From a bacterium (GTDB lineage: Bacteria > Myxococcota > UBA727 > JAUIJE01), in NCBI GenBank assembly GCA_030431455.1, contig JAUIJE010000006.1:248001-312000 (forward strand): 64,000 nt of DNA, given 5' to 3'. Positions within the stretch are counted from its first letter, which is position 1. Each line of letters begins with the position of its first letter. Made by a program: the position numbers and the translations under genes. The notes under the pieces are model-generated. The model was given only the letters and a program-made list of their open reading frames with translations, was not told the DNA's origin and made no database searches. Of this stretch, positions 395 to 56,131 are shown piece by piece.

Positions 395-3300
395 ATGGCC
401 AAGCGACTTTGGGTGGCCCTTCCAACACTGTGCGTGCTCTTCGGCGTGGCCGACGGGTCGTGGGCGAAAGGGTACGGCGGCCAGACGCTGACCAAGAAGG
501 CGGAGGGCACCGACCCCTTTTTGGAGGCGTACCGCTTGTTGCTGATCACGCCCTTGGGCTGCCCGGGGGCGAGTCCGGCCCAATGCTTAGACAGTACGTA
601 TGGCATGACCACCTGCGGGCAAAAACAAGCGCAGGTGCTGATCGATTGGGACGCCGGCACCTGTGCGGCCACCTGTGACGCCTACGTTCCGACCCTGCAG
701 GAATGCCAGACCGCCGACTTCCTCAATTCCATCTGTGGTCAACGCGAGCGCGACCGCATGTTTGACGCGGACGCCTACTCCCTGATCGCCGACGACCAAG
801 AGCAGATTCCCATCCCCGACCACCCCTCGACATGTGTCGACATTCTGCGGGTGTTTGGCGAAGACGCGCAGAACACAAGCCCCTTTCAGTCGGTGTTCGA
901 CAATGCCATTGAAACGGTCGCGGTGGTGGCCGATACCTCGGCGGTGGTGGTGGGTGACGACAACAACCCCACCGTCGGTGATGAGACCCTCCTGTCCCAC
1001 GGCTACAGCGACCCCAACTTCCCGACGCATGCCGTACGCCAAACCCCGCCGGCCTTCGCCCGGTTCGAGACCGACGGCACCAGCTCGTTGTTTGGGGTGA
1101 AGGTCGCCCAAGAAGACATCGGGCTGCGCAACCAGGACAGCGCCGCCTACGAGACCAACATCTTCCTCGCCATTCGCAACGGCTGGGACGCCAACGGCAT
1201 CGCGGTGGAGAGCTGTCGCGAATACGCCTACGAGAAGTTCTACGACTATTCCAAATGGGAAGACCGCACCCACTACCTGGGCGCCGACGCCCGGGCCAAG
1301 GTCCTGGCCGCCTACGACGACGAGGTCCTGCCTTGGTCCATCGGCACGCGCATGATCAACGGGATAAAGCTGCGCCGCAAGGATGGGGTGCAGACCTACG
1401 AACAGGTGTTCTTCGGGTCGGGCTTCACCGCCAAAAACGAGTTCTTCGCCACCCCCACCCACTTCCCCAGCGATCCCGACCGCCAGGAGAACATCACCGA
1501 ATGGAACATGAACGGGTACAACCTCTCGTTTCCCGATCCCACCACCGGGGAGGTGTATACCGCCAACACCATTCGCCCACTGGACATCCTCAACCCCATC
1601 ATCCTCGACGAGGACTTGTGGAACACGCTGGTGGACGGACGGCTGCACCACAAGGTCACCAAGACCTGGGCCTGGCACAAACAAATGAGCGAGGACCTGT
1701 TCGCAGCGGGCTACATCGATGAAGAGCTGTTCGCGCGGGACCGGCTCAAGGAGCGCTATGCACAGTTGCTCCACCAGCGCCACCTGCTGAAGTGGTACCT
1801 CGCGGACCAAATTCTCGAGGCCTACGGCTTCTCGTTGAACCAGTTCCTCGAGGTCCCCGACTTGGTTCCGGGCTTTCACCCCGAGCAGCTCGTCAATCCT
1901 GCCGACGACCTGCTCAACCTCGGCACCTTCAGCCAGGCCCTCACCCAGATCGACGTCCAGAACGAAGAAGTACAAGAATCCATCGGCCTCACCACCGAGG
2001 CCATCCACCCTGGGGCCATCGGGGCCATCAACCTCGGGTTCGTGCAGAACAACCTCCCCGGGGGCACGACCCAGACCGCCTATTCGGGGACGTCCAACGT
2101 TGGCCCGACAAAAAACTACGGGCTGTCGAGCGGTCTCATCCACCAACTGACAAAGACCCACCACAGCAGCTTTTCCGACATCTTTGAGATCAAGCCGGGC
2201 GAGAACAAGTTCGAACGGTTGGCCCGCTTGGCCGAGGCCTTGGCGGTGGCCGACTTCCGGCTCGAGTCCTATCTCAACTACGCCGCCGACTACGGCTGCT
2301 TGGACCTCGAGGGTCCCAACCCGTGCGATTGGTCGCCGGACTACTTCGCCAACACCCTGCGCGACTTCGTCGCCTCGGCCCGCGAGCGGGACTACCAGAC
2401 CTGCCTGAAAAAGACCGCGCCCCCGGGGGCGGCCAACCTCGACCCCAACACCGTCGACGCGGTTGGCTTTGCCCAGTTGTTCACCCCCACCGACTTCGTA
2501 GAGGACCGCTTCTACATTGATGTGGGGCAGACCCAGAAGTTTGCCGGGTACTACGACGCCCAAGGCAATCCGCAGAAGCTGTGCAATCTCTCCGCCTACA
2601 ACGGCAACACCGAGGACGTGGAATGGTTCTTTCGGTGCATCGACCTCTACCGCGGTCAGCTGATCTACGCGCTCGACAACGCGCTCGACGGGGGCGGGGT
2701 GGCGCTCGACCCCGCGACCAACGAGGTCAAGCTGTCCGACAACACGTCCGACGGCGAATGGCTGGGCGGGGATGCCTTCGGGGTCGGCTACGACTACGCG
2801 GCCCGTTGGAGCTTGACCGGGCTCAAAGAGGGGGCCGGCTACGACCCGAACAACCCCGACGCCCCCGCCGGGGATCAGGACTGGTGCGCCCTCAAGCCCC
2901 ACCTGCACGGCCACATGGACGTCGAGGCGCGGGCGATGTACGCCGACGTGGACCTCTTTTCGGCCAGCGCCGACGTCGGGCTCGACCCCGCCGAGGGACC
3001 GCCCAACGGCTACATCGAAATCTTGGGCCAGACCCTGATCGGCACCAAGGGCAATCTGCAGACCCCCCAAGCAGACACGTTCCACGTCATCTTCAAGGAC
3101 AAAAAAGAGCTCTCGGAGACGTTCTTCTCGGTGCGGGCCACGGTGATGATCGGCCCGGTCCCGGTGACGATCAAGGCCGGGCTCGCCGGGCGCATCGGGG
3201 CCAACTTCGAGCTGTCGGTGGGCTCGGGCCCGGGGTCGGGCGGCAGCACGTGCCAGGCCGGGGGCATGGTCTTGAGCGCTCGCTTTGCCCCATTTGCGTC

Positions 3301-3676
3301 CGTGGACGCGTTCGCGTCGGCGAGCTTGGACGCGCTCATCGTGGAGGCGGGGGTCAAGATCTCGTTGGTGATCGCGGGCATCACGTTCCCGTTCACGACG
3401 ACGTTGCGGGCGGAGGGCAAGGTGATCAGCCCGACCAACACCGACGTTCGGCTGGTCATCGACAGCAACCTGGACGTGGTGTTTTGGTTCCTGTCCGGGC
3501 GGGTCTCGGCGTTCGTAAAGTTTTGCTTCATCATTTGCGAAACCATCGAAGGGACCATTTTTGAATGGGACGGGCCCCGCATCGTGATCCCCCTGGTGGA
3601 CACGTCCTTCAGCATTCGCCTCGTCCCGCTGGCGGGCATCAACCCGCCCGCCCCCGCGTCGAGCGCGGCCCCATGA
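395..3676 (+). CDS. Very large secreted protein of unknown function (1093 aa)
   Basis: I chose the ATG at 395 because it follows a GGGGTGAGG ribosome site and opens a classic signal peptide (MAKRLWVALPTLCVLFGVA, cleavage near SWA/KGYGG). An in-frame start at 299 would bury the signal. The first 150 residues are rich in Cys pairs. The middle is mixed alpha/beta and rich in Tyr, Trp and Asp. The last 250 residues (from about NGYIEILGQTLIG) are a run of alternating hydrophobic beta strands, with some Cys, ending VPLAGINPPAPASSAAP. No catalytic motif stands out. Its stop overlaps the start of the next gene (ATGA at 3673-3676), so the two are almost certainly co-translated and probably work together outside the cytoplasm. 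No family recognised. Confidence 0.85.
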   Translation: MAKRLWVALPTLCVLFGVADGSWAKGYGGQTLTKKAEGTDPFLEAYRLLLITPLGCPGASPAQCLDSTYGMTTCGQKQAQVLIDWDAGTCAATCDAYVPTLQECQTADFLNSICGQRERDRMFDADAYSLIADDQEQIPIPDHPSTCVDILRVFGEDAQNTSPFQSVFDNAIETVAVVADTSAVVVGDDNNPTVGDETLLSHGYSDPNFPTHAVRQTPPAFARFETDGTSSLFGVKVAQEDIGLRNQDSAAYETNIFLAIRNGWDANGIAVESCREYAYEKFYDYSKWEDRTHYLGADARAKVLAAYDDEVLPWSIGTRMINGIKLRRKDGVQTYEQVFFGSGFTAKNEFFATPTHFPSDPDRQENITEWNMNGYNLSFPDPTTGEVYTANTIRPLDILNPIILDEDLWNTLVDGRLHHKVTKTWAWHKQMSEDLFAAGYIDEELFARDRLKERYAQLLHQRHLLKWYLADQILEAYGFSLNQFLEVPDLVPGFHPEQLVNPADDLLNLGTFSQALTQIDVQNEEVQESIGLTTEAIHPGAIGAINLGFVQNNLPGGTTQTAYSGTSNVGPTKNYGLSSGLIHQLTKTHHSSFSDIFEIKPGENKFERLARLAEALAVADFRLESYLNYAADYGCLDLEGPNPCDWSPDYFANTLRDFVASARERDYQTCLKKTAPPGAANLDPNTVDAVGFAQLFTPTDFVEDRFYIDVGQTQKFAGYYDAQGNPQKLCNLSAYNGNTEDVEWFFRCIDLYRGQLIYALDNALDGGGVALDPATNEVKLSDNTSDGEWLGGDAFGVGYDYAARWSLTGLKEGAGYDPNNPDAPAGDQDWCALKPHLHGHMDVEARAMYADVDLFSASADVGLDPAEGPPNGYIEILGQTLIGTKGNLQTPQADTFHVIFKDKKELSETFFSVRATVMIGPVPVTIKAGLAGRIGANFELSVGSGPGSGGSTCQAGGMVLSARFAPFASVDAFASASLDALIVEAGVKISLVIAGITFPFTTTLRAEGKVISPTNTDVRLVIDSNLDVVFWFLSGRVSAFVKFCFIICETIEGTIFEWDGPRIVIPLVDTSFSIRLVPLAGINPPAPASSAAP
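901..911. repeat. Iterated dyad CAATGNCATTG, perfect copy
   Basis: CAATGCCATTG inside the large secreted protein gene, read as Asn-Ala-Ile with the codons AAT and ATT, which are unusual against the GC-rich codon use around it. Confidence 0.6.
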
Positions 3677-10139: not shown

Positions 10140-12911
10140 ATGATTTCGCTGCTGACCGCCTTGCTGATCGCCACCGCGCCCCCGGCGCCGGACGCCGTCC
10201 GGGCCCGATTTGTCGACGACGCGCGCGTCGCGCCGGCCCTCCGGCTGCAAGCCCAGCGCGCGCGAAGTGTGCGCGGCGCGTACGATCCGATCACGGACGG
10301 CAACTTCATCGCGGTGTTCGAGCACGCCCTCGCGGACACCGAGCAAAAAGCCCTCGAGGCCTCCGGGGTTCGGTTCTTGCCCGCGGGCGATGGGCTCGCG
10401 CGGATCGGTCTCAGCTACGGCGTGACCGCGAGCGCCGACGGGCTCTCCGCCTTGCTCCAGCACCCGGCGTTGGCCGCGCTCGATGACGGTCGGGTCCCCG
10501 ACGTGCCGCCGGCCGCACCCCACGACTACGGTTTGGTGCACGAGCAGACCACCACGTCGTCGATCTGGGGCCTGCGGCAAGACGGCGCGCGCCTCGACGG
10601 CGAGGGCGTCACATTGTGCGACCTGGATTCCGGCGTGGACATCTTCCACCCGCTCTTCTTTCGGGCCGACGCGGGGACGTACCGCTGGACCGACGTGAAC
10701 AACAACGGCGTGCTCGATTTCGGGGTCGACGGTGTCGACCTCGATGGCGACGGGTCCGTGGCCAGCGACGAGGTCGTCCAGTACATGGGCGGGGCCCTCG
10801 CCGGCCTGGGCGGGGGCGTGCCGGTGCCGAGTGGTCCATTCGAAGCGGGCAAACAGTTCGTGTACGTCGACCGCAACGGCAACGGGGTTCGCGACCACGG
10901 CCCGGCGGCAGGGTTCGACGACAGCACTCCCGCGTTTGGCGAGCCGTTGTTTGTGGTGGACGACGTGGACGAGGACGCCGCCGCCTCGGTCGACGAGCGC
11001 CTGTTGCGCTTGGGCTCGAGCAAGATCGCCGGCATTTACAACCCCACCAACAACGAGGTCTTCACCCGGGGCATCGACCTCACCGACTACGTGTCCGGAG
11101 AGGACGGCCATGGCACCGGGGTCGCGGGCATCCTCGTCGGGGGCGTGCTCGACCGCACCTATGTGCAGGGGGTCGCGCCGGGGGCGGACTTCTTGCTCAT
11201 CGACCAAGGTCAGTCCGGCGAAGGGGTCGACGGCGAGACCTACGAAGCCAACCTCGTCGCCGCGATGAGCTGGGCCGAATCCCAAGGCTGCGACGTGATG
11301 GTCCACGAATACGGCGTCAACGTGAGCGACTTCGCTGACGGGTCGTCGGCCCGCGAAGCCATCATCGACCAACTCGCCGACGACGGCATGGTTCAGACCA
11401 CCGCGACCCACAACTTTGCCGACAACAACAGCCACGCCGAGCTCTCGGTGGGCCCGGGACAAACCGTCAACGTGCTCGTGAGTGTGCAAGACATGGGGCC
11501 GTTCGGCTATCCCGCCTACTACCTGCTGGGCGCGCTGCGGTGGACGGCCCCGGTCTCCATCTCCGCCACAATGACCCTGCAGAACGGGACCGCCTACGAC
11601 CTGACCCAAGAAAACGCGGTGGGGAGCGAATACTGCTCGGGCGGCGGCTATACGTCGACGCGCGGCACCCAGCTGATCTCCTGGTACGCGGGCTTCTGGG
11701 ACCCTGGCACCGGCGTGCCCCACACCCTGCCCGCCGGCACCTACGCCATCCAGGTGACCAACCAAGGGGCGGAGGCCGCGGTCATTCACCTGAGCCTCAC
11801 CGACGAGTACCAGTACTCAGTGTCCAATGACATTGTGGCGGGGGCGGGGGTGTCGGTCACCAACCTCGGGACCATCGCTTGGCCCGCCACCGCCGACCGG
11901 GCGATCAGCGTCGGCGCCACCGTCGGCAACTTCGTGCACGACAACGAAGTGGAGGGCGGGCTGCGGACGTTCTCGGGACGGGGCCCGCGCATCGACGGGG
12001 ACCGGGGCGTCGACGTGGTGGCCCCGTCCGATCACTACAGCGCGGCCCCGTTGAGCGTGGGCGAGGACGGGGCGTACTTGGTGTTCGGCGGGACCTCGGG
12101 GGCGTTGCCGCAGGTGGCCGGCGCGGTGGCCCTGCTGCTGCAAAAAGACCCCGCCCTGACCCCGGACGAGGTCAAGGACCTGGTGGTGGCGCGCTCGTCG
12201 GAAGACGCGCTCAGCGGCGCGGTGCCCAACGTCGAATGGGGCGGGGGGCGGTTGGCCACGTACCGGTTGTTGATGGACGAAGACCCGCCCGCGAACGAGG
12301 CCCCGGTGCTCGGCGTCGACGCGCCCACCGCGGTGTACGTCGGCGAGGTCGCGACCATCGATGCGTCGGCGACCACCGACGCCGACGACGGACTGGCGGG
12401 CCTCACGTTCTATTGGGACGTGGACTACGACGGGGTCTTCGACGAGAGCGGCGCGACCCCCACCCTCGAGGTCACCGCGATGGCGTACGGGCGGCGGGTG
12501 GTGAAGGTCCGGGTGGAAGATGCCTTTGGGGCCGCGGACGAGCAGTTGGTGGCGTTCGACGTGAACGAGGTCGTCGGCGATGGGGACGGCGACGGCGACG
12601 GTGACGGTGATGGTGATGGGGACGGCGACGGTGATGGTGATGGCGACGGTGACGGGGACGGTGATGGGGACGGCGACGGTGATGGGGACGGCGACGGTGA
12701 TGGGGACGGCGACGGTGATGGGGACGGAGACGGCGATGGGGACGGCGATGGGGACGGCGATGGGGACGGCGACGGCGACGGGGACGGCGACGATGCCGGG
12801 TTTGGCTGTGGGTGTGCCGCGTCGGCCTCGCCGGTCGAGGCCGGGCTCGGCTTGGCCCTGCTGTTCGGGCTGTGGATTCGTCCCCGCCGTCGTCGAGACC
12901 GGGCCGCGTAG
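10140..12911 (+). CDS. Surface subtilisin-like serine protease (S8) with Gly-Asp stalk
   Basis: A 923-residue secreted protease. A short N-terminal hydrophobic signal ([13 protein letters not shown]) is followed by a propeptide-like region, then the S8 catalytic domain with Asp163 in [11 protein letters not shown], His324 in [12 protein letters not shown] and Ser653 in [12 protein letters not shown]. The gap between Asp and His contains an insertion with Asp-rich [12 protein letters not shown]-type loops, probably calcium sites. After the catalytic domain comes a PKD/Ig-like module ([18 protein letters not shown]), a 72-residue Gly-Asp stalk and a MYXO-CTERM-like tail: GCGC, hydrophobic helix, RPRRRR. 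The start has a GGGAGGA ribosome site. Such tails are processed by a sorting peptidase and leave the enzyme on the cell surface; that step is inferred from the family. Confidence 0.93.
11825..11835. repeat. Iterated dyad CAATGNCATTG, perfect copy
   Basis: CAATGACATTG inside the subtilase gene, read as Asn-Asp-Ile (AAT GAC ATT). Confidence 0.6.
12576..12791 (+). repeat. Gly-Asp hexanucleotide tract (36 units)
   Basis: 36 consecutive GGNGAY hexamers encode an uninterrupted (Gly-Asp)36 stalk between the PKD-like domain and the C-terminal anchor of the subtilase. Third codon positions vary among synonymous bases. Confidence 0.97.
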
Positions 12912-28626: not shown

Positions 28627-28716
28627 GGAGGGGTGGCAGAGCGGTTGAATGCACCGGACTTGAAATCCGGCGTGCCGGCAACGGTACCGTGGGTTCGAAT
28701 CCCACCTCCTCCGCCA
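28627..28716 (+). tRNA. tRNA-Ser(UGA)
   Basis: A 90-nt class II tRNA with encoded CCA. The acceptor GGAGGGG pairs with CTCCTCC, with discriminator G before CCA. The anticodon stem CCGGA/TCCGG closes the loop CTTGAAA, giving anticodon TGA. A long variable arm as expected for Ser and a T arm GTGGG-TTCGAAT-CCCAC follow. The last 19 nt of the gene are repeated twice more downstream in a 142-bp tandem repeat. Confidence 0.97.
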
Positions 28717-29040
28717 GCCATGACTTGCCATGGCGCCCGCGCAGAGGTGGGTGAGAACCCACGTGTCTGACGGCAGCGGCTCGCGGTGTGTGTTTCTTTC
28801 ACAATGCGACTGCCGCGCTTCCGTCAGACGTCCGGTGACAATCCCACCTCCTCCGCCAGCCATGGCTTGCCATGGCGCCCGCGCAGAGGTGGGTGAGAAC
28901 CCACGTGTCTGACGGCAGCGGCTCGCGGTGTGAGTTTTTTTCACAATGCGACTGCCGCGCTTCCGTCAGACGTCCGGTGACAATCCCACCTCCTCCGCCA
29001 GCCATGGCTTGCCATGGCGCCCGCGCAGAGGTGGGTGAGA
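28698..29040 (+). repeat. 142-bp tandem repeat beginning with the tRNA-Ser 3-prime end (2.4 copies)
   Basis: Copies begin at 28698 (inside the tRNA), 28840 and 28982; the spacing is exactly 142 bp each time and the third copy stops after about 59 bp. Each copy starts with the same 19 bases (AATCCCACCTCCTCCGCCA), the tRNA 3-prime terminus with CCA, and identity with the tRNA does not extend further upstream. Copies 1 and 2 differ at only a few positions. Each full unit can fold: in copy 2, GCCATGG-CTTG-CCATGGC (28859-28876), GTGGGT-GAGA-ACCCAC (28889-28904), and a long pairing GTCTGACGG (28907-28915) with CCGTCAGAC (28963-28971). Open frames across this stretch look like artefacts of the repeat. 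Confidence 0.93.
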
Positions 29041-29063
29041 AGCCGCGTGTCCCTTTTTGCGGC

Positions 29064-30821
29064 TCACCCCGTCAAATCGATCACGTCCGCGCCCGGCGAT
29101 GCCGCAAACAAGCGGTCGACGGCGCCCGCGCGCCGGAGCAAGACCCGGCGCTGGTTGGTGTAGCCCTTGTCGGTGGTTTCGCCGTCGTCGAGGGACAAGG
29201 GCTCGTCGAGCACGAGGGCCCGCGCCACCCGCTGGCTGTTGCCGGGGTGGGCCGCGTTGTGGGCCCGCAGGCCGGCCTCGACGCGGTCCCGCAGGGCCGT
29301 GGGATCCTGGTCGCGCGCGGCGGGGCTGGGGATCAGCAGCGCGCCCAGGGAAGGGCGGTCGTGGCCGGCGATGACACAATCCGACAGCATGGGCGAACAG
29401 GCTTCGACGATGGCGAGGCGCAACCCGCCGACGTTGACCCAGGTGCCGCTGGAGAGCTTGAAGTTCTCGCTGATCCGGCCGTCGAACCGCACGCCGGCGT
29501 TGGGGTCATCGGCGTCGACCAAGGCCCCGGCGTCGCCGGTGGGCAAAAAGCCGTCCGCGTCGCGCTCGACCGGGGTCATGCCGCCGCCGCGTTGCCAATA
29601 CCCGGGGGTGACGTGCGGGCCTTTGACCCGCAGCTCGAGCCGGTCGCCGACGGGGGCGAGCTTCAGCTCCACCCCGGGGACCGGTACGCCGAGGGTGCCG
29701 GAGGTGGTGGTGCGGAAATGGGCCGAGGTGGTCAGCGGGGCGGTCTCGGTCGAGCCCCAGGCCGAGGTGAAAAAGACGTCGCGTTTGCCCGCGGCGTCGG
29801 CCACCGCTTCGAGGCGTTTTCGCGTCGAGGGGCCGAGGGCGGCGGCGGCGTAAAAAAGCACCCGCAGGCGCCGAAACACCGCGCGCGCGAGGTCAGGGTC
29901 CTGCTCCAGGGCGAGCACCGCTTGGTCGAACCCCCGGGGCACGTTGAACCAGATGGTGGGGCCCACCTCGGCGAGGTTTCGCAGCGTGGTGTCGAGCAAC
30001 CCGGGCGCGGGGCGCCCCGCATCGATGTACAGCGTGCCCCGGTGGCGCAGCACCATGTGGAAGTTGTGGTTGCCGCCGAAGGTGTGGCTCCAGGGGAGCC
30101 AGTCGACGACCACGGGGGGCTCGTCGTCGAGAAATGGCCAGCACGCGGCCAGGCTCTCCTGGTTGGCGGTCAACATGCGGTGGGTGTTGATCACCCCTTT
30201 GGGGTCACCGGTTGACCCCGAGGTGAACAACACCTTGGCCACGGTGTCGGGCCCGATGTTCGCGCGGGGGGCCGCGGCACCGTCCGCCATCGCGCGGGCC
30301 ACCGCCGGGCCGTCGAGAACCTGCGTGTCCGCCATGCCAAGGGCCACAAGCGCCCCGTGGACCCGGCCCCGGTCGGCCGCGAACACCACCCCGGGTTGGA
30401 TCAGGTCGTGCACGTACCGCAGCCGCGCGAACGTCGACGTCGGGGCCGAGTACGCCGACGACACCGGCACCACCGGCGCGCCCACCCACATCGCGGCGAG
30501 GCCGACGACGGCGTGGTCGACGCCATTGTCGGACAGAATCATCACCGGGCGCGTGGCCTCGGCCCCGCGGTCCAGGAGCAACCGGGCGACGCGGCCGACC
30601 CCCTGGTGGACCGCGGCGTAGGTGAGGGTCCGCCAGGCCCCGTCCCCGCTGCGCTCGGCCAAGAACACCCGGTCTGGCGCGGCCTCGGCGGCCTGGTCCA
30701 ACCAAGACAGCACCGTCGGCGCCGGCGCGGGGAGCGCGGTGGTCGAGGCGAGGACGGTGCCGCCCGGACCCGAGGTCGCGCGGATCGAGGGGCGAAGCAA
30801 TCGCAGGGGGGTGGCGGTCAT
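29064..30821 (-). CDS. Feruloyl-CoA synthase-like acyl-CoA ligase
   Basis: A 585-residue ANL-superfamily enzyme that should activate a carboxylic acid to its adenylate and then the CoA thioester. The P-loop [17 protein letters not shown], the block [42 protein letters not shown] and the hinge-near Lys in [13 protein letters not shown] are all present. The [14 protein letters not shown] and TLYID blocks are particularly close to feruloyl-CoA synthases, which act on phenylpropanoid acids; an alternative is another aryl- or fatty-acid ligase. No vanillin or beta-oxidation partner is next to it. It is divergent from the GFA gene, with about 180 bp between. Confidence 0.9.
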
Positions 30822-31423: not shown

Positions 31424-32716
31424 TCACAGCCCTTCGATGTACAGCGCGTCGATTTCGCTTTGGCTCAGGGCCCGTTCGTACACGCGCACGTCGTCGATGT
31501 AGCCCGGGTACCCCGAGAACTCATCCGCGCTGGTCCCGCTGCAGAGGTTCCCGTCGGGCCAGGACCCGATGTAGAAGCGGCAGGTGTCCCCCGGCTGCAC
31601 GAAGGTGGTGGCGGGCATCGTGATGCCCGCCTGGGTCCCGTCGAGGTACACCGCGACCTCGGTCATGCCCGGGGCCACCCGCGACACCACCCCGACGATG
31701 AAGTGCCAACCCTCGCCGGGGTTGGCCCCGGTGCTCGGCCAGCTGTACGCGGTGGAGGCAAACAGGCCGTCTAGGTCGCCCATCACCACGCCGGATCCGG
31801 GCGAGAACAGGTTGAACCAATCCCCCTGGCCCATCAGCCGCACGTCGTTGCCCTGAAAGCCGCCCCCCACCGGCGCGTTGTTGATCCACAGCGCGTAGCT
31901 AAACGATTCGTTGAGCTCGATGTGGGGCGCGGACACGAGCGGAATCGATCCAGAGTCATTGTTGGCCCAAAAGTCGCGCGCCTTGTCCCCGAACCCGAAC
32001 CGATCGGTCTCGTACAGGTCCACGCCATCGCTGCTCAACGGAATGCCGCCGGCCACATCTTCGGTGGTGCCGTCGAACGGCACTTGCAGCACCAGCCCGT
32101 CGGTGGGCAGCCGGATCATCACCGGCCAGGTGTCCTCATCGCTCACCCCCATCCCGTCGCTGACCGACACCACGATGGTCACATCCATGGGCACCGCCCC
32201 GTACTCGTGCGTGTGGTTCGAGACCCCGTCGGTGGCCGCCACCATCTCCACCGCCGCGTCTCCCCAATCCAACTGCAGCTGCGCGGCCGACCCTGCGGTG
32301 TCGGTCACCGTCACCGTCAACGCCACGGTCAAACCATCCACCACAGGCTCATCGACCGCCACCGTGGGCCGGTCTCCGTCTCCATCTCCATCTCCATCTC
32401 CATCCCCGTCACCATCCCCGTCACCATCCCCGTCGCCGTCACCATCTCCATCTCCATCTCCATCTCCATCGCCGTCGCCATCGCCGTCGCCGTCCCCGTC
32501 TCCATCGCCGTCCCCGTCCCCGTCGCCGTCACCGTCGCCGTCCCCGTCCCCGTCGCCATCGCCGTCGCCATCCCCCGGCCCGGCGGCGCAGAACCCGTCG
32601 GTGCAGACTTCATCGTCCGCACAGTCGGACGCGGCGTTGCAGACGGTGGGACAGCCCCCCGCGCACATCACCGCCGCCATCACCAGCACGAACATCCCCA
32701 CCCGCCAACCGATCAT
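31424..32716 (-). CDS. Lipoprotein with Gly-Asp stalk, PKD-like and LamG-like domains
   Basis: A 430-residue lipoprotein: the signal MIGWRVGMFVLVMAAVMCAGGC is followed by a small Cys-rich knot (TVCNAASDCADDEVCTDGFC), a 68-residue Gly-Asp stalk, a PKD/Ig-like domain (PVVDGLTVALTVTVTD) and a C-terminal concanavalin/LamG-like jelly roll (VPFDGTTEDVAGG, FSYALWINN, YIDDVRVYERALSQSEIDALY). The last motif is the usual end of LamG_3 domains. Probably a carbohydrate- or matrix-binding surface protein; the ligand is unknown. It lies 16 nt behind the FlgO/TolB-like gene on the same strand. Confidence 0.9.
   Translation of the reverse strand: MIGWRVGMFVLVMAAVMCAGGCPTVCNAASDCADDEVCTDGFCAAGPGDGDGDGDGDGDGDGDGDGDGDGDGDGDGDGDGDGDGDGDGDGDGDGDGDGDGDGDGDGDGDGDGDGDRPTVAVDEPVVDGLTVALTVTVTDTAGSAAQLQLDWGDAAVEMVAATDGVSNHTHEYGAVPMDVTIVVSVSDGMGVSDEDTWPVMIRLPTDGLVLQVPFDGTTEDVAGGIPLSSDGVDLYETDRFGFGDKARDFWANNDSGSIPLVSAPHIELNESFSYALWINNAPVGGGFQGNDVRLMGQGDWFNLFSPGSGVVMGDLDGLFASTAYSWPSTGANPGEGWHFIVGVVSRVAPGMTEVAVYLDGTQAGITMPATTFVQPGDTCRFYIGSWPDGNLCSGTSADEFSGYPGYIDDVRVYERALSQSEIDALYIEGL
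32372..32575 (-). repeat. Gly-Asp hexanucleotide tract (34 units)
   Basis: 34 hexamers encode (Gly-Asp)34 directly after the N-terminal Cys-rich knot of the LamG lipoprotein. The opposite strand reads as Ser-Pro repeats, which is not a gene. Confidence 0.95.
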
Positions 32717-44610: not shown

Positions 44611-46959
44611 ATGCGCCACGTCTTGTTTCCGTTGTCGCTTTGCCTGTTTCTGTTGAGCGGGGTGCCGGTCCTGTCCGGGTGCCCCAGCGGCGATGGGGAT
44701 GGGGACGGTGACGGGGATGGCGACGGGGATGGGGATGGCGACGGTGACGGCGACGGGGATGGCGACGGGGATGGTGACGGTGACGGTGACGGCGACGGTG
44801 ACGGCGACGGGGATGGCGACGGCGACGGGGATGGCGACGGCGACGGGGATGGCGACGGTGACGGGGATGGTGACGGCGACGGGGACGGCGACGGTGACGG
44901 TGACGGTGATGGAGACGGTGACGGTGACGGGGACGGTGACGGGGATGGCGACGGCGACGGGGACGGGGACGGCGACACCTGGACGTGCGACCCCGAGTAC
45001 TTCGATGAGACCGGCCAAGGTCTGCCCGCGTACTGTGACTGCAATTGCGGGATCTACGACCCCGACTGCGACAACCCGGGGCTCAGCTTGTTTGGTTGCC
45101 CCGCGGGGGCGGCCCAAGGGTGGACCTGCGACGCGGCGGGCGAGTGCACCAACGAGGCCTGCGGCGACGGGGTGATCGACCTGCTCAACGGAGAGGACTG
45201 CGACGACGGCAACACCACCGGCGGGGATGGGTGCACCACCTGCGAGATCGACGACGGGTTTGTGTGCAATGGCGCGCCGTCGATGTGCACCGCCCAATGC
45301 GGCAACGGGGTGGTCGAGCCCGCGGAGGAATGTGACGACGCCAACGCGGTGGCGGGGGACGGGTGCACCAATTGCGCGGCCGACGTCGGCTACACCTGCG
45401 CCGGCGCGCCCTCGGTGTGCACGCTGACCTGCAGCGATGGGGTCATCGACACCGGGATCGGCGAGGTCTGTGACGACGGCAATCTCGTGGCCGGGGACGG
45501 GTGCGATCCCGCGTGCGCGTTGGAGCCCGGGTACGGCTGTACCGGGGAGCCGTCGGTGTGTGTGTTCACCTGCGGCGACGGGGTGCTCGACCCCAACGAA
45601 GAATGCGACGACGGCAACCTCATCGATGGCGACGACTGCAGCGCGCTGTGCCTGATCGAGTTCAGCTGTGACCCCGGCGAGTACCAGTGCAGCATCGACG
45701 ACGAGTGCATCCCCCTCAACTACGTGTGCGACAACTTCACCGACTGCAGCGACGGCGAAGACGAGAGCGTCGAGGTGTGCGGGGCCTGCGGCGACGGCGA
45801 GCTCAACCCCGACGAGCAGTGCGACGACGGCAACCTCACCCCTGGCGACGGGTGCTCGGCCTCGTGCACCATCGAAGGCTGCGGCAACGGGTTCATCGAC
45901 GTGGGCGAGGAGTGCGACGACGGCAACCAAGCGGACGGCGACGGGTGCACCGCGGACTGCGCCATCGAGGACCTGTCCACCGTGCACGAGACCGAACCCA
46001 ACGACGATGGCACCCCCGAGGTGGACATCCTCGACTTCGACTCCGCCGCCGCCAACGGACCGTTTACCCAGAGCGAGATCATCGCCGCGTCGATCAACCC
46101 CGCGGGGGACGAGGACGTGTTCGCCTTCGCCAACCTCGGCACCGAGACCCAGGTGCTGCGGCTGTTCACCTATGACCTCGGCGGGCCCGGGAGCTGCAAC
46201 ATCGACACCCGGCTGTGGGTGCGCGACGCGGCCGGGCTCGAGCTCGCGTTCGACGACGACAGCGGCCCGGGCTATTGCTCGGTGGTGGAGTACGCGGTGG
46301 GCCCGGGGGTCACGGTCTATGCCCACGTCGACGAGTGGGGGGACAACAACGTGCTCAACAACTACTACCTCGAAGCCCAGTTCTACGTGCCGGTGTGCGG
46401 CGACGGCCTGCTCGACGCCGGGGAGGAGTGCGACGACGGCAACAACGTGGGCAACGATGGTTGCGCGGCGGATTGTCAGTTCGAGACCATCTGCGGCAAC
46501 ACCGCGGTGGAGCCGGGCGAGCAGTGTGACGACGGGAACGTCGTCGACGGCGATGGCTGTTCGGCCCTGTGCGAGTACGAGGTCGAGGCCGAGATCGAGC
46601 CCAACAACGACGCGGCCAACGCCCAAGCGGTCAACGGCAGCGTGTCCGGCCTGATCGAGGTGGCGGGCGACTTTGACTACTATGCCTATGCACTGGTGGC
46701 CGGTCAGACCATCACCGCCGAGACCGTGGACAACGGCGACGGCACCTGCGCGGCCAACCAGAAGGATTCGGAAATCCGCATCTACGCCGTCGACGGCGTG
46801 ACCGAGCTGGGCGACGACGACGACGACGGGGCCGGGTGGTGCTCGCGGCTGTCGGTCACCGTGCCCGCCGACGGCGTGTACTTCGTGCGGGTGGCCGCGT
46901 CCCAAGCCTTCGCCCAGAACGCGACCTTCGACTACATCCTGACCATCAACATCCAGTGA
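44611..46959 (+). CDS. Lipoprotein with Gly-Asp stalk, DUF4215 repeats, an LDL-receptor A-like module and two PPC domains
   Basis: A 782-residue lipoprotein; AGGAGG ends 9 nt before the chosen ATG and the signal ends [12 protein letters not shown] 96-residue Gly-Asp stalk follows. Then come eight Cys-rich DUF4215 repeats ([18 protein letters not shown] is the first), interrupted by a six-Cys module [14 protein letters not shown] ... [13 protein letters not shown] that matches the LDLa pattern, including its acidic Ca site. Two pre-peptidase C-terminal (PPC) jelly-roll domains ([15 protein letters not shown] and [16 protein letters not shown]) lie in the C-terminal half. No enzyme domain is present, so it is probably a binding or adhesive surface protein. 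Confidence 0.93.
44689..44976 (+). repeat. Gly-Asp hexanucleotide tract (48 units)
   Basis: The longest such tract in the window: 48 GGNGAY hexamers starting three codons after the lipid-anchor Cys of the LDLa-like lipoprotein. Confidence 0.97.

Positions 46960-55069: not shown

Positions 55070-56131
<1,062 letters not shown>

What the first reader, a model, noticed from the sequence alone, without database searches (positions are those of the whole stretch)
28627..29040. tRNA-Ser followed by a 142-bp tandem repeat that copies the last 19 nt of the tRNA
Seen: tRNA-Ser(UGA) is followed by 2.4 copies of a 142-bp unit, each beginning with the identical 19 nt of the tRNA 3-prime end including CCA; identity stops exactly there. 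Each unit has strong hairpins, one closed by GAGA and one by CTTG. Known: in E. coli tyrT a repeat unit of about 178 bp likewise begins with 19 bp of the tRNA 3-prime end and yields rtT RNA on processing. Inference: this is an independent example of that design in a distant phylum, so the unit may be released as a small RNA by the tRNA 3-prime maturation enzymes, or the duplicated ends may act as integration/attachment cores.
Basis: partly seen in the sequence, partly recalled or inferred. Interest (0 to 1): 0.8.

Follow-up and report, generated by a model that had tools for sequence, protein, structure and literature searches.

The report
rtT-type tRNA-tail repeats after tRNA-Ser
Behind a serine tRNA gene sits a tandem non-coding repeat whose every copy ends in an exact replica of the tRNA's tail; it has the same build as the old E. 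coli "rtT" repeat, and the survey made here shows that such repeats follow many different tRNAs in many bacteria, each copy carrying the tail of its own tRNA.

Summary
tRNA-Ser(UGA) (28627-28716) is followed by 2.5 copies of a 142-bp unit, bounded by exact copies of the tRNA's last 19 nt. A genome of the same phylum (G033) and E. coli tyrT/tyrV have the same build, with 95-97 nt between inverted T-arm and tail. In Gammaproteobacteria an rtT-like core occurs in 66 of 369 species genomes, behind Ser, Arg, Gln, Tyr, Glu, Pro and Val tRNAs. Its tail matches its own tRNA (<=1 mismatch in 45 of 74 units) but never another isotype's (0 of 74). In one genome nearly the same core (80/84 nt) sits behind tRNA-Gln and tRNA-Val, each with fitting ends. 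E. coli strains carry 0, 2 or 3 units, gained or lost exactly at the CCA. Best reading: a tRNA-sparing repeat unit, inserted and removed as DNA at the tRNA 3' end, a new variant of the rtT kind. Release as an RNA is known for E. coli and untested here.

The parts
28627..28716 (+). tRNA-Ser(UGA) gene, CCA encoded
   Evidence: ARAGORN; Rfam tRNA 61.1 bits
28698..28716 (+). original tRNA 3' end, nt 58-76 (AATCCCACCTCCTCCGCCA)
   Evidence: sequence
28698..28839 (+). repeat unit 1 (142 bp)
28840..28981 (+). repeat unit 2 (142 bp, 98% to unit 1)
28982..29051 (+). partial third unit: tail copy, spacer and inverted T-arm only
   Evidence: (96% over 70 bp)
28840..28858 (+). tail copy 1, exact 19-nt copy of the tRNA 3' end
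28982..29000 (+). tail copy 2, exact 19-nt copy of the tRNA 3' end
28744..28763 (-). inverted T-arm of unit 1: GAGGTGGG-TGAGAA-CCCACG, antisense of tRNA nt 61-68 and 48-53 with altered loop
   Evidence: sequence
28886..28905 (-). inverted T-arm of unit 2
29028..29041 (-). inverted T-arm of the partial unit (GAGGTGGGTGAGAA)
   Evidence: sequence
28744..28858 (+). 115-nt core of unit 1, closed by the 8-bp helix GAGGTGGG/CCCACCTC, 8-nt 3' overhang CTCCGCCA
28886..29000 (+). 115-nt core of unit 2
28765..28829 (+). long interior hairpin of unit 1 (GTCTGACGG...CCGTCAGAC)
   Evidence: (pair I2)
28907..28971 (+). long interior hairpin of unit 2
   Evidence: pair I4
28717..28734 (+). spacer hairpin GCCATGACTTGCCATGGC (loop CTTG) between tRNA CCA and the inverted T-arm; repeated at 28859-28876 and 29001-29018
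   Evidence: sequence

Best explanation
This is an rtT-type tRNA-tail repeat: a small non-coding DNA unit that sits directly behind a tRNA gene. Each unit has four parts: a spacer, an inverted copy of that tRNA's T-arm, a hairpin-rich interior, and a fresh copy of the tRNA's nt 58-76. Because each unit ends in the tRNA's own 3' end, units can be inserted, lost or multiplied exactly at the CCA without harming the tRNA. The tail copies are the recombination boundaries, so the array grows and shrinks by whole units. Read-through transcripts from the tRNA promoter may be cut at the duplicated CCA by the tRNA 3'-end maturation enzymes, as annotated for E. coli RttR. Shown: the anatomy; the same build in G033, in E. 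coli and in many Gammaproteobacteria; tails that fit the adjacent tRNA; one core behind different tRNAs in one genome; filled and empty sites in E. coli strains. Inferred: the window's array arose and varies in the same way; how a unit reaches a new tRNA and acquires fitting ends; any transcript.
For: Exact 19-nt tails and the inverted T-arm in every unit. G033: the same build after tRNA-Ser(TGA) with exactly the same 95-nt span from GGTGAGAACC to GGTGAnAATCC, and a unit body identical in two copies whose spacers differ. E. coli tyrT-tyrV: the same build. A model trained on window, G033 and E. coli units (R1) found further units behind Ser and Tyr tRNAs in Gammaproteobacteria. A core pattern taken from those units hits 66 of 369 Gammaproteobacteria genomes, against 1 for the reversed control. 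Tail fits own tRNA with <=1 mismatch in 45 of 74, and no other-isotype tail fits with fewer than 4 mismatches. G220: core 80/84 identical behind tRNA-Gln and tRNA-Val, with matching ends at each. E. coli: the tyrT-tyrV spacer is 34 nt in N-01 and EP91A and holds an extra unit in K-12; downstream of tyrV there are 0, 2 and 3 units; every junction falls right after the 19-nt tail. rtT units are in 4695 of 5426 E. coli genomes, median 3 places, maximum 14.
Against: The window's own locus has no close relative with an empty site, so gain or loss was not seen there. Only two of about 190 genomes of the phylum have this kind of unit. The window's interior has none of the gamma-type linkers, so common descent rests on the ends and the spacing. 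Precise loss between 19-bp direct repeats needs no dedicated machinery, and no mobilising enzyme was identified. R1 was trained on the window units, so its scores for them are not independent evidence. 18 of 95 gamma cores have no tRNA within 900 nt upstream in the stretch held, and 19 of 74 scorable units have tails with more than 3 mismatches.
Confidence: 0.66

Rival explanations
1. A functional small RNA, with the tail copies and inverted T-arm kept because the RNA needs them. The unit is co-transcribed with tRNA-Ser, folds into a structure closed by the 8-bp helix with the tail, and is released by tRNA 3'-end maturation at the duplicated CCA. The RNA then acts on stress or tRNA metabolism, as proposed for rtT.
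For: The fold is much more stable than shuffles, and more so on the + strand (z -4.6 against -3.5). Gamma units share a helix closing a set of hairpins, with strongly covarying stems. RttR in K-12 ends exactly at the duplicated CCA. RtT-family RNAs were reported expressed in Actinobacillus, and a role in the stringent response is cited there to Bosl and Kersten 1991 (PMC4986893).
Against: In several gamma loci an intrinsic terminator lies between the tRNA and each unit. The P3 stems carry very few G.U pairs (3 against 598 Watson-Crick; tRNA arms 39 against 2300; p = 0.03, weak). In tRNA-Arg loci the inverted T-arm matches the tRNA but does not pair with the tail copy. RttR showed no listed effect in one E. 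coli sRNA screen (PMC4606813). Many E. coli genomes lack the unit altogether.
Confidence: 0.3
2. Attachment-site relics. Each tail copy is the right att core left by a tyrosine-recombinase element that used the tRNA T-loop, and the inverted T-arm is a second core-type site; the integrating DNA itself is gone.
For: A 19-bp tRNA 3'-end direct repeat is what T-loop integration leaves behind. In G051, same genus as G033, a phage integrase gene (PF00589, 2.6e-33) starts 9 bp after the same tRNA-Ser. In G033 a further array copy is preceded by the 3' half of the tRNA, as after integration in the anticodon loop.
Against: No integrase or phage gene next to the window's array; the neighbours are an amidase and an acyl-CoA synthetase. 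Units are uniform, structured and tandem, share interiors across loci, and have no match in phages or plasmids beyond the tRNA itself. The sequence left of the tail core does not follow the tRNA (same GGAGT before Gln and Val tails), unlike a paired core arm.
Confidence: 0.18
3. An ordinary tandem duplication at a tRNA 3' end, or an assembly artefact, without further meaning.
For: Only one locus in this genome.
Against: Two unit copies differ by a few bases, so the array is not a collapsed or duplicated read. The same anatomy recurs in G033, E. coli and 66 gamma genomes, and tails fit 11 different tRNA anticodons.
Confidence: 0.03

Closest known systems
RtT / rttR RNA of the E. coli tyrT operon (Rfam RF00391; Bosl and Kersten 1991)
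   Same: Tandem units behind a tRNA, each bounded by the tRNA's last 19 nt; inverted T-arm (GGGGAAGG-GTGAGAA-CCTTCG) pairing with the tail; 95-97 nt between the two.
   Different: tRNA-Ser instead of tRNA-Tyr; unit 142 against 178 bp; interior is one long hairpin without the GGUUCGAC...CCCGNAGGG linkers; Rfam score 15.8 bits against a cut-off of 45.
sX4 (Rfam RF02223, Xanthomonas)
   Same: The model contains a tRNA-Ser-like 3' half and ends in GGGGGGUGAGA, and it aligns to the window's tRNA plus the first inverted T-arm (37.7 bits).
   Different: Below its cut-off of 70 bits; most of the score is the tRNA; the one gamma locus above the cut-off (L174) has no unit.
Genomic-island attachment sites at tRNA 3' ends (tyrosine integrases)
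   Same: Direct repeat of the tRNA 3' end; the tRNA stays intact.
   Different: The unit is about 123 bp beyond the tail, codes for nothing recognised, is repeated in tandem, and carries an inverted T-arm.
REP/BIME palindromic repeats
   Same: Short non-coding palindromic repeats; rtT-like sequences were linked to BIMEs in enterobacteria (PMC2965389).
   Different: Tied to tRNA 3' ends and end-matched to each tRNA; the window's genome has a single locus.

Membership tests
RtT RNA (RF00391) as defined by Rfam | Covariance-model score at or above the gathering cut-off (45 bits) | tested here: not met
   15.8 bits, full length 1-130, for both units; no match over the cut-off in 19 relatives
RtT RNA (RF00391) as defined by Rfam | Gamma-type interior (GGUUCGAC, GNACG, CCCGNAGGG linkers with covarying hairpins) | tested here: not met
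   absent in the window and in G033
rtT-type tRNA-tail repeat (class as drawn here) | Unit directly behind a tRNA, bounded by copies of that tRNA's nt 58-76 | tested here: met
   own-tail against other-tail control
rtT-type tRNA-tail repeat (class as drawn here) | Inverted T-arm upstream of the interior, complementary to the tail copy | tested here: met
   8 of 8 pairs in both units, G033 and E. coli
rtT-type tRNA-tail repeat (class as drawn here) | About 95 nt between inverted T-arm and tail | tested here: met
   95 nt in window and G033, about 97 in E. coli
RttR small RNA | Stable RNA ending at the duplicated CCA | not testable with these tools
   needs RNA from this organism
RttR small RNA | tpr-like small ORF inside the unit | not tested
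   present in E. coli annotation; not examined in the window
sX4 (RF02223) | Score at or above 70 bits | tested here: not met
   37.7 bits, carried mainly by the tRNA
Tyrosine-integrase island at a tRNA | Integrase gene next to the repeat | tested here: not met
   Pfam of the flanking genes: amidase and AMP-binding
REP/BIME | Many dispersed copies in the genome | tested here: not met
   one locus only

The most novel reading that the evidence does not exclude
rtT-type units are a distinct, widespread kind of minimal mobile DNA element, non-coding and about 120-190 bp. They colonise the 3' ends of many different tRNA genes, rebuilding the tRNA's tail and an inverted T-arm to fit each new host tRNA while carrying the same hairpin core from tRNA to tRNA. 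The arrays in the window and in G033 would be a lineage of these elements with a different core.
Probability: 0.35. Interest if true: 0.85.

Novelty: new variant of a known kind. Interest (0 to 1): 0.62.

Why it matters
rtT has stood for over thirty years as a by-product of the E. coli tyrT operon, with a loosely proposed role in the stringent response. The comparison here suggests that it is one member of a broad class of tRNA-tail repeats found behind at least seven tRNA isotypes. Their ends are rebuilt to match each tRNA, and whole units come and go exactly at the CCA. That makes two questions testable: what moves these units from one tRNA to another and rewrites their ends, and whether the RNA has a function or the unit is a tRNA-sparing genomic passenger. 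It also warns that sRNA annotations such as RtT and sX4 may mark this repeat class or plain tRNA rather than regulators.

Tried and rejected
(1) A two-motif pattern over genome contigs and viral contigs: all hits but G033 were coding repeats or chance. (2) A T-arm plus GGTGAGAACC pattern in viral contigs: mostly chance; one real inverted T-arm after tRNA-Arg (L148) without a tail copy. (3) sX4 as the parent family: the gamma hits are mostly plain tRNAs and the one above the cut-off has no unit. (4) A TGAGAA loop as an obligatory RNA motif: in gamma units the loop varies between the exact antisense ATTCGAA and ATGAGAA, ATTTGAA and others. (5) A G.U against A.C strand test to separate RNA from DNA: a first count looked striking, but with a fair control it is only p = 0.03, so it is treated as weak. 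(6) Inverted T-arms as a general feature of tRNA flanks: rare without a unit. (7) The 40-nt hit elsewhere in the own genome (C18) appears to lie inside a coding gene and is unrelated. (8) Phage and plasmid collections: only the tRNA part matches. (9) Gamma-type cores in the window's phylum: the pattern hits look like chance, and one alphaproteobacterium (G646) has a tandem pair.

Full report
OBSERVATION. The tRNA and the array are as described. tRNA-Ser(UGA) lies at 28627-28716 and a 142-bp tandem repeat at 28698-29051 (2.5 copies, 97% matches). Two full copies are 98% alike; the third stops early. AATCCCACCTCCTCCGCCA (tRNA nt 58-76) is exact in the tRNA and in both later positions, and the base before it differs, so the match is exactly 19 nt. 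The unit exists nowhere else in the 7.7-Mb genome. The array is squeezed between the tRNA and the stop codon (29064) of a convergent acyl-CoA synthetase gene; on the other side of the tRNA lies an amidase gene. There is no integrase, transposase or phage gene at the spot.

ANATOMY. Each unit reads: tail copy, spacer with a CATGGC palindrome, GAGGTGGG-TGAGAA-CCCACG, long hairpin (GTCTGACGG...CCGTCAGAC), CCGGTGAC, next tail copy. The GAGGTGGG...CCCACG piece is the reverse complement of the tRNA's T-arm (nt 48-53 and 61-68) with an altered loop. It can pair with the tail copy over 8 bp, leaving the 8-nt overhang CTCCGCCA. The fold is well below shuffles (z -4.6 for +, -3.5 for -).

RELATIVES. Of about 190 genomes of the same phylum only one other, G033 (JACRCV010000034.1, a groundwater 'Deltaproteobacteria' MAG), has the structure. 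The phylum is unnamed by the tools; I take it to be Myxococcota from genome sizes and record titles (inference). G033 has two units after the same tRNA-Ser(TGA), plus a third unit behind a 3' half of the tRNA 1.3 kb downstream, as left by an integration in the anticodon loop. The G033 stem is GAGGAGGG against CCCTCCTC, so it changes together with its tRNA. The span from GGTGAGAACC to GGTGAnAATCC is 95 nt in both genomes. The two G033 spacers differ while the unit bodies are identical, so the body is the kept part.

E. COLI rtT. The K-12 tyrT-tyrV region shows the same anatomy: GGGGAAGG-GTGAGAA-CCTTCG, about 97 nt, then AATCCTTCCCCCACCACCA. The annotated RttR RNA ends at the last A of the duplicated CCA. 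Rfam's RtT model aligns over its full length to both window units but far below its cut-off (15.8 against 45 bits). By the Rfam definition the window is therefore not a member; by anatomy it is the same kind of repeat.

A WIDE CLASS. A model built from window, G033 and E. coli units (R1) found further units in Gammaproteobacteria. Their common interior (GGTTCGAC, hairpin, GNACG, hairpin, CCCGNAGGG) was then used as a pattern: 66 of 369 genomes, about 135 sites, reversed control 1. In the 95 units examined, units follow tRNA-Ser (four anticodons), Arg, Gln, Tyr, Glu, Pro and Val. Of 74 scorable units, 45 have a tail within one mismatch of their own tRNA. Against the tail of another isotype the best fit was never below 4 mismatches. 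The inverted T-arm also fits its own tRNA better (8 of 8 pairs in 20 units against 4 with a wrong tRNA). In genome G220 the core behind tRNA-Gln and the core behind tRNA-Val agree at 80 of 84 positions, with two of the four differences forming a compensating pair, while both ends match the respective tRNA. Similar pairs occur among Ser and Arg loci. Alphaproteobacteria gave one real-looking case in 240 genomes, and the phylum of the window gave no gamma-type core.

FILLED AND EMPTY SITES. E. coli strains N-01 and EP91A have a 34-nt spacer between tyrT and tyrV. K-12 has the same 34 nt preceded by one unit plus a tail copy. Downstream of tyrV, N-01 has no unit, EP91A two and K-12 three, each followed at once by the same native sequence. 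So units are gained and lost as wholes, exactly at the tRNA's last A. rtT sequence is in 4695 of 5426 E. coli genomes, median 3 places, up to 14.

MECHANISM. The best-supported account is a DNA-level one: a tRNA-sparing repeat unit inserted and removed at the tRNA 3' end, multiplying in tandem through its tail copies. How the inverted T-arm and the tail come to fit a new tRNA is not shown; templated copying from the tRNA gene or later selection are both open. An RNA-level role is not excluded. Gamma units have strongly covarying hairpins, E. coli RttR is annotated as an RNA, RtT-family RNAs were reported expressed in Actinobacillus (PMC4986893), and rtT-like sequences were noted among BIME-related attenuator candidates (PMC2965389). 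Against a required RNA: terminators stand before units in several loci, G.U pairs are few (weak evidence), and in tRNA-Arg loci the inverted T-arm fits the tRNA but not the helix with the tail. The attachment-site reading has support from G051, where a tyrosine integrase gene starts 9 bp behind the same tRNA.

VERDICT. The finding is real and is a new variant of a known kind (rtT-type repeats) in a distant phylum. The broader class that emerged while checking it appears, as far as the searched open-access papers show, not to have been described as such. Subscription papers, including Bosl and Kersten 1991, could not be read.

Noticed in passing
L039 (G033) 2187-3668: A 1.3-kb segment with a small helix-turn-helix gene lies between the array and a second 3' half of tRNA-Ser (starting CTTGAAAACCG) followed by another unit: looks like an integrated element using the anticodon loop of the same tRNA.
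   Followed up: partly
L043 (G051) 1010-1771, minus strand: A tyrosine integrase (PF00589) begins 9 bp after the same tRNA-Ser(TGA) in a genome of the same genus as G033: the locus is an integration site.
   Followed up: yes
L148 (IMG/VR contig) about 500-680, minus strand: tRNA-Arg(tcg), then an intrinsic terminator, then CCCGGAGGG-TGAGAA-CCCCCA: an inverted T-arm with no tail copy within 400 nt.
   Followed up: partly
L210 (G468) 1429-1622: A unit flanked by tail copies on both sides but with no tRNA upstream in the stretch; a transposase-like sequence seems to lie upstream; possibly the right edge of an island that cut the tRNA.
   Followed up: no
window 12575-12792, 32373-32572, 44688-44976, 55168-55391: Long 6-18 bp repeat tracts; the one at 32373-32572 codes for a poly-Gly-Asp stretch in a predicted lipoprotein-like ORF (31424-32716, minus strand).
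   Followed up: no
window 29034-29071: The array's end forms a hairpin GGGTGA-GAA-GCCGC...GCGGC-TCACCC that overlaps the last codons of the convergent acyl-CoA synthetase gene.
   Followed up: no
Rfam RF02223 (sX4) searches: sX4 hits below its cut-off in 76 of 114 gamma genomes; those looked at are tRNA-Ser or other tRNA genes, so published sX4 'sRNA' calls may be tRNAs.
   Followed up: partly
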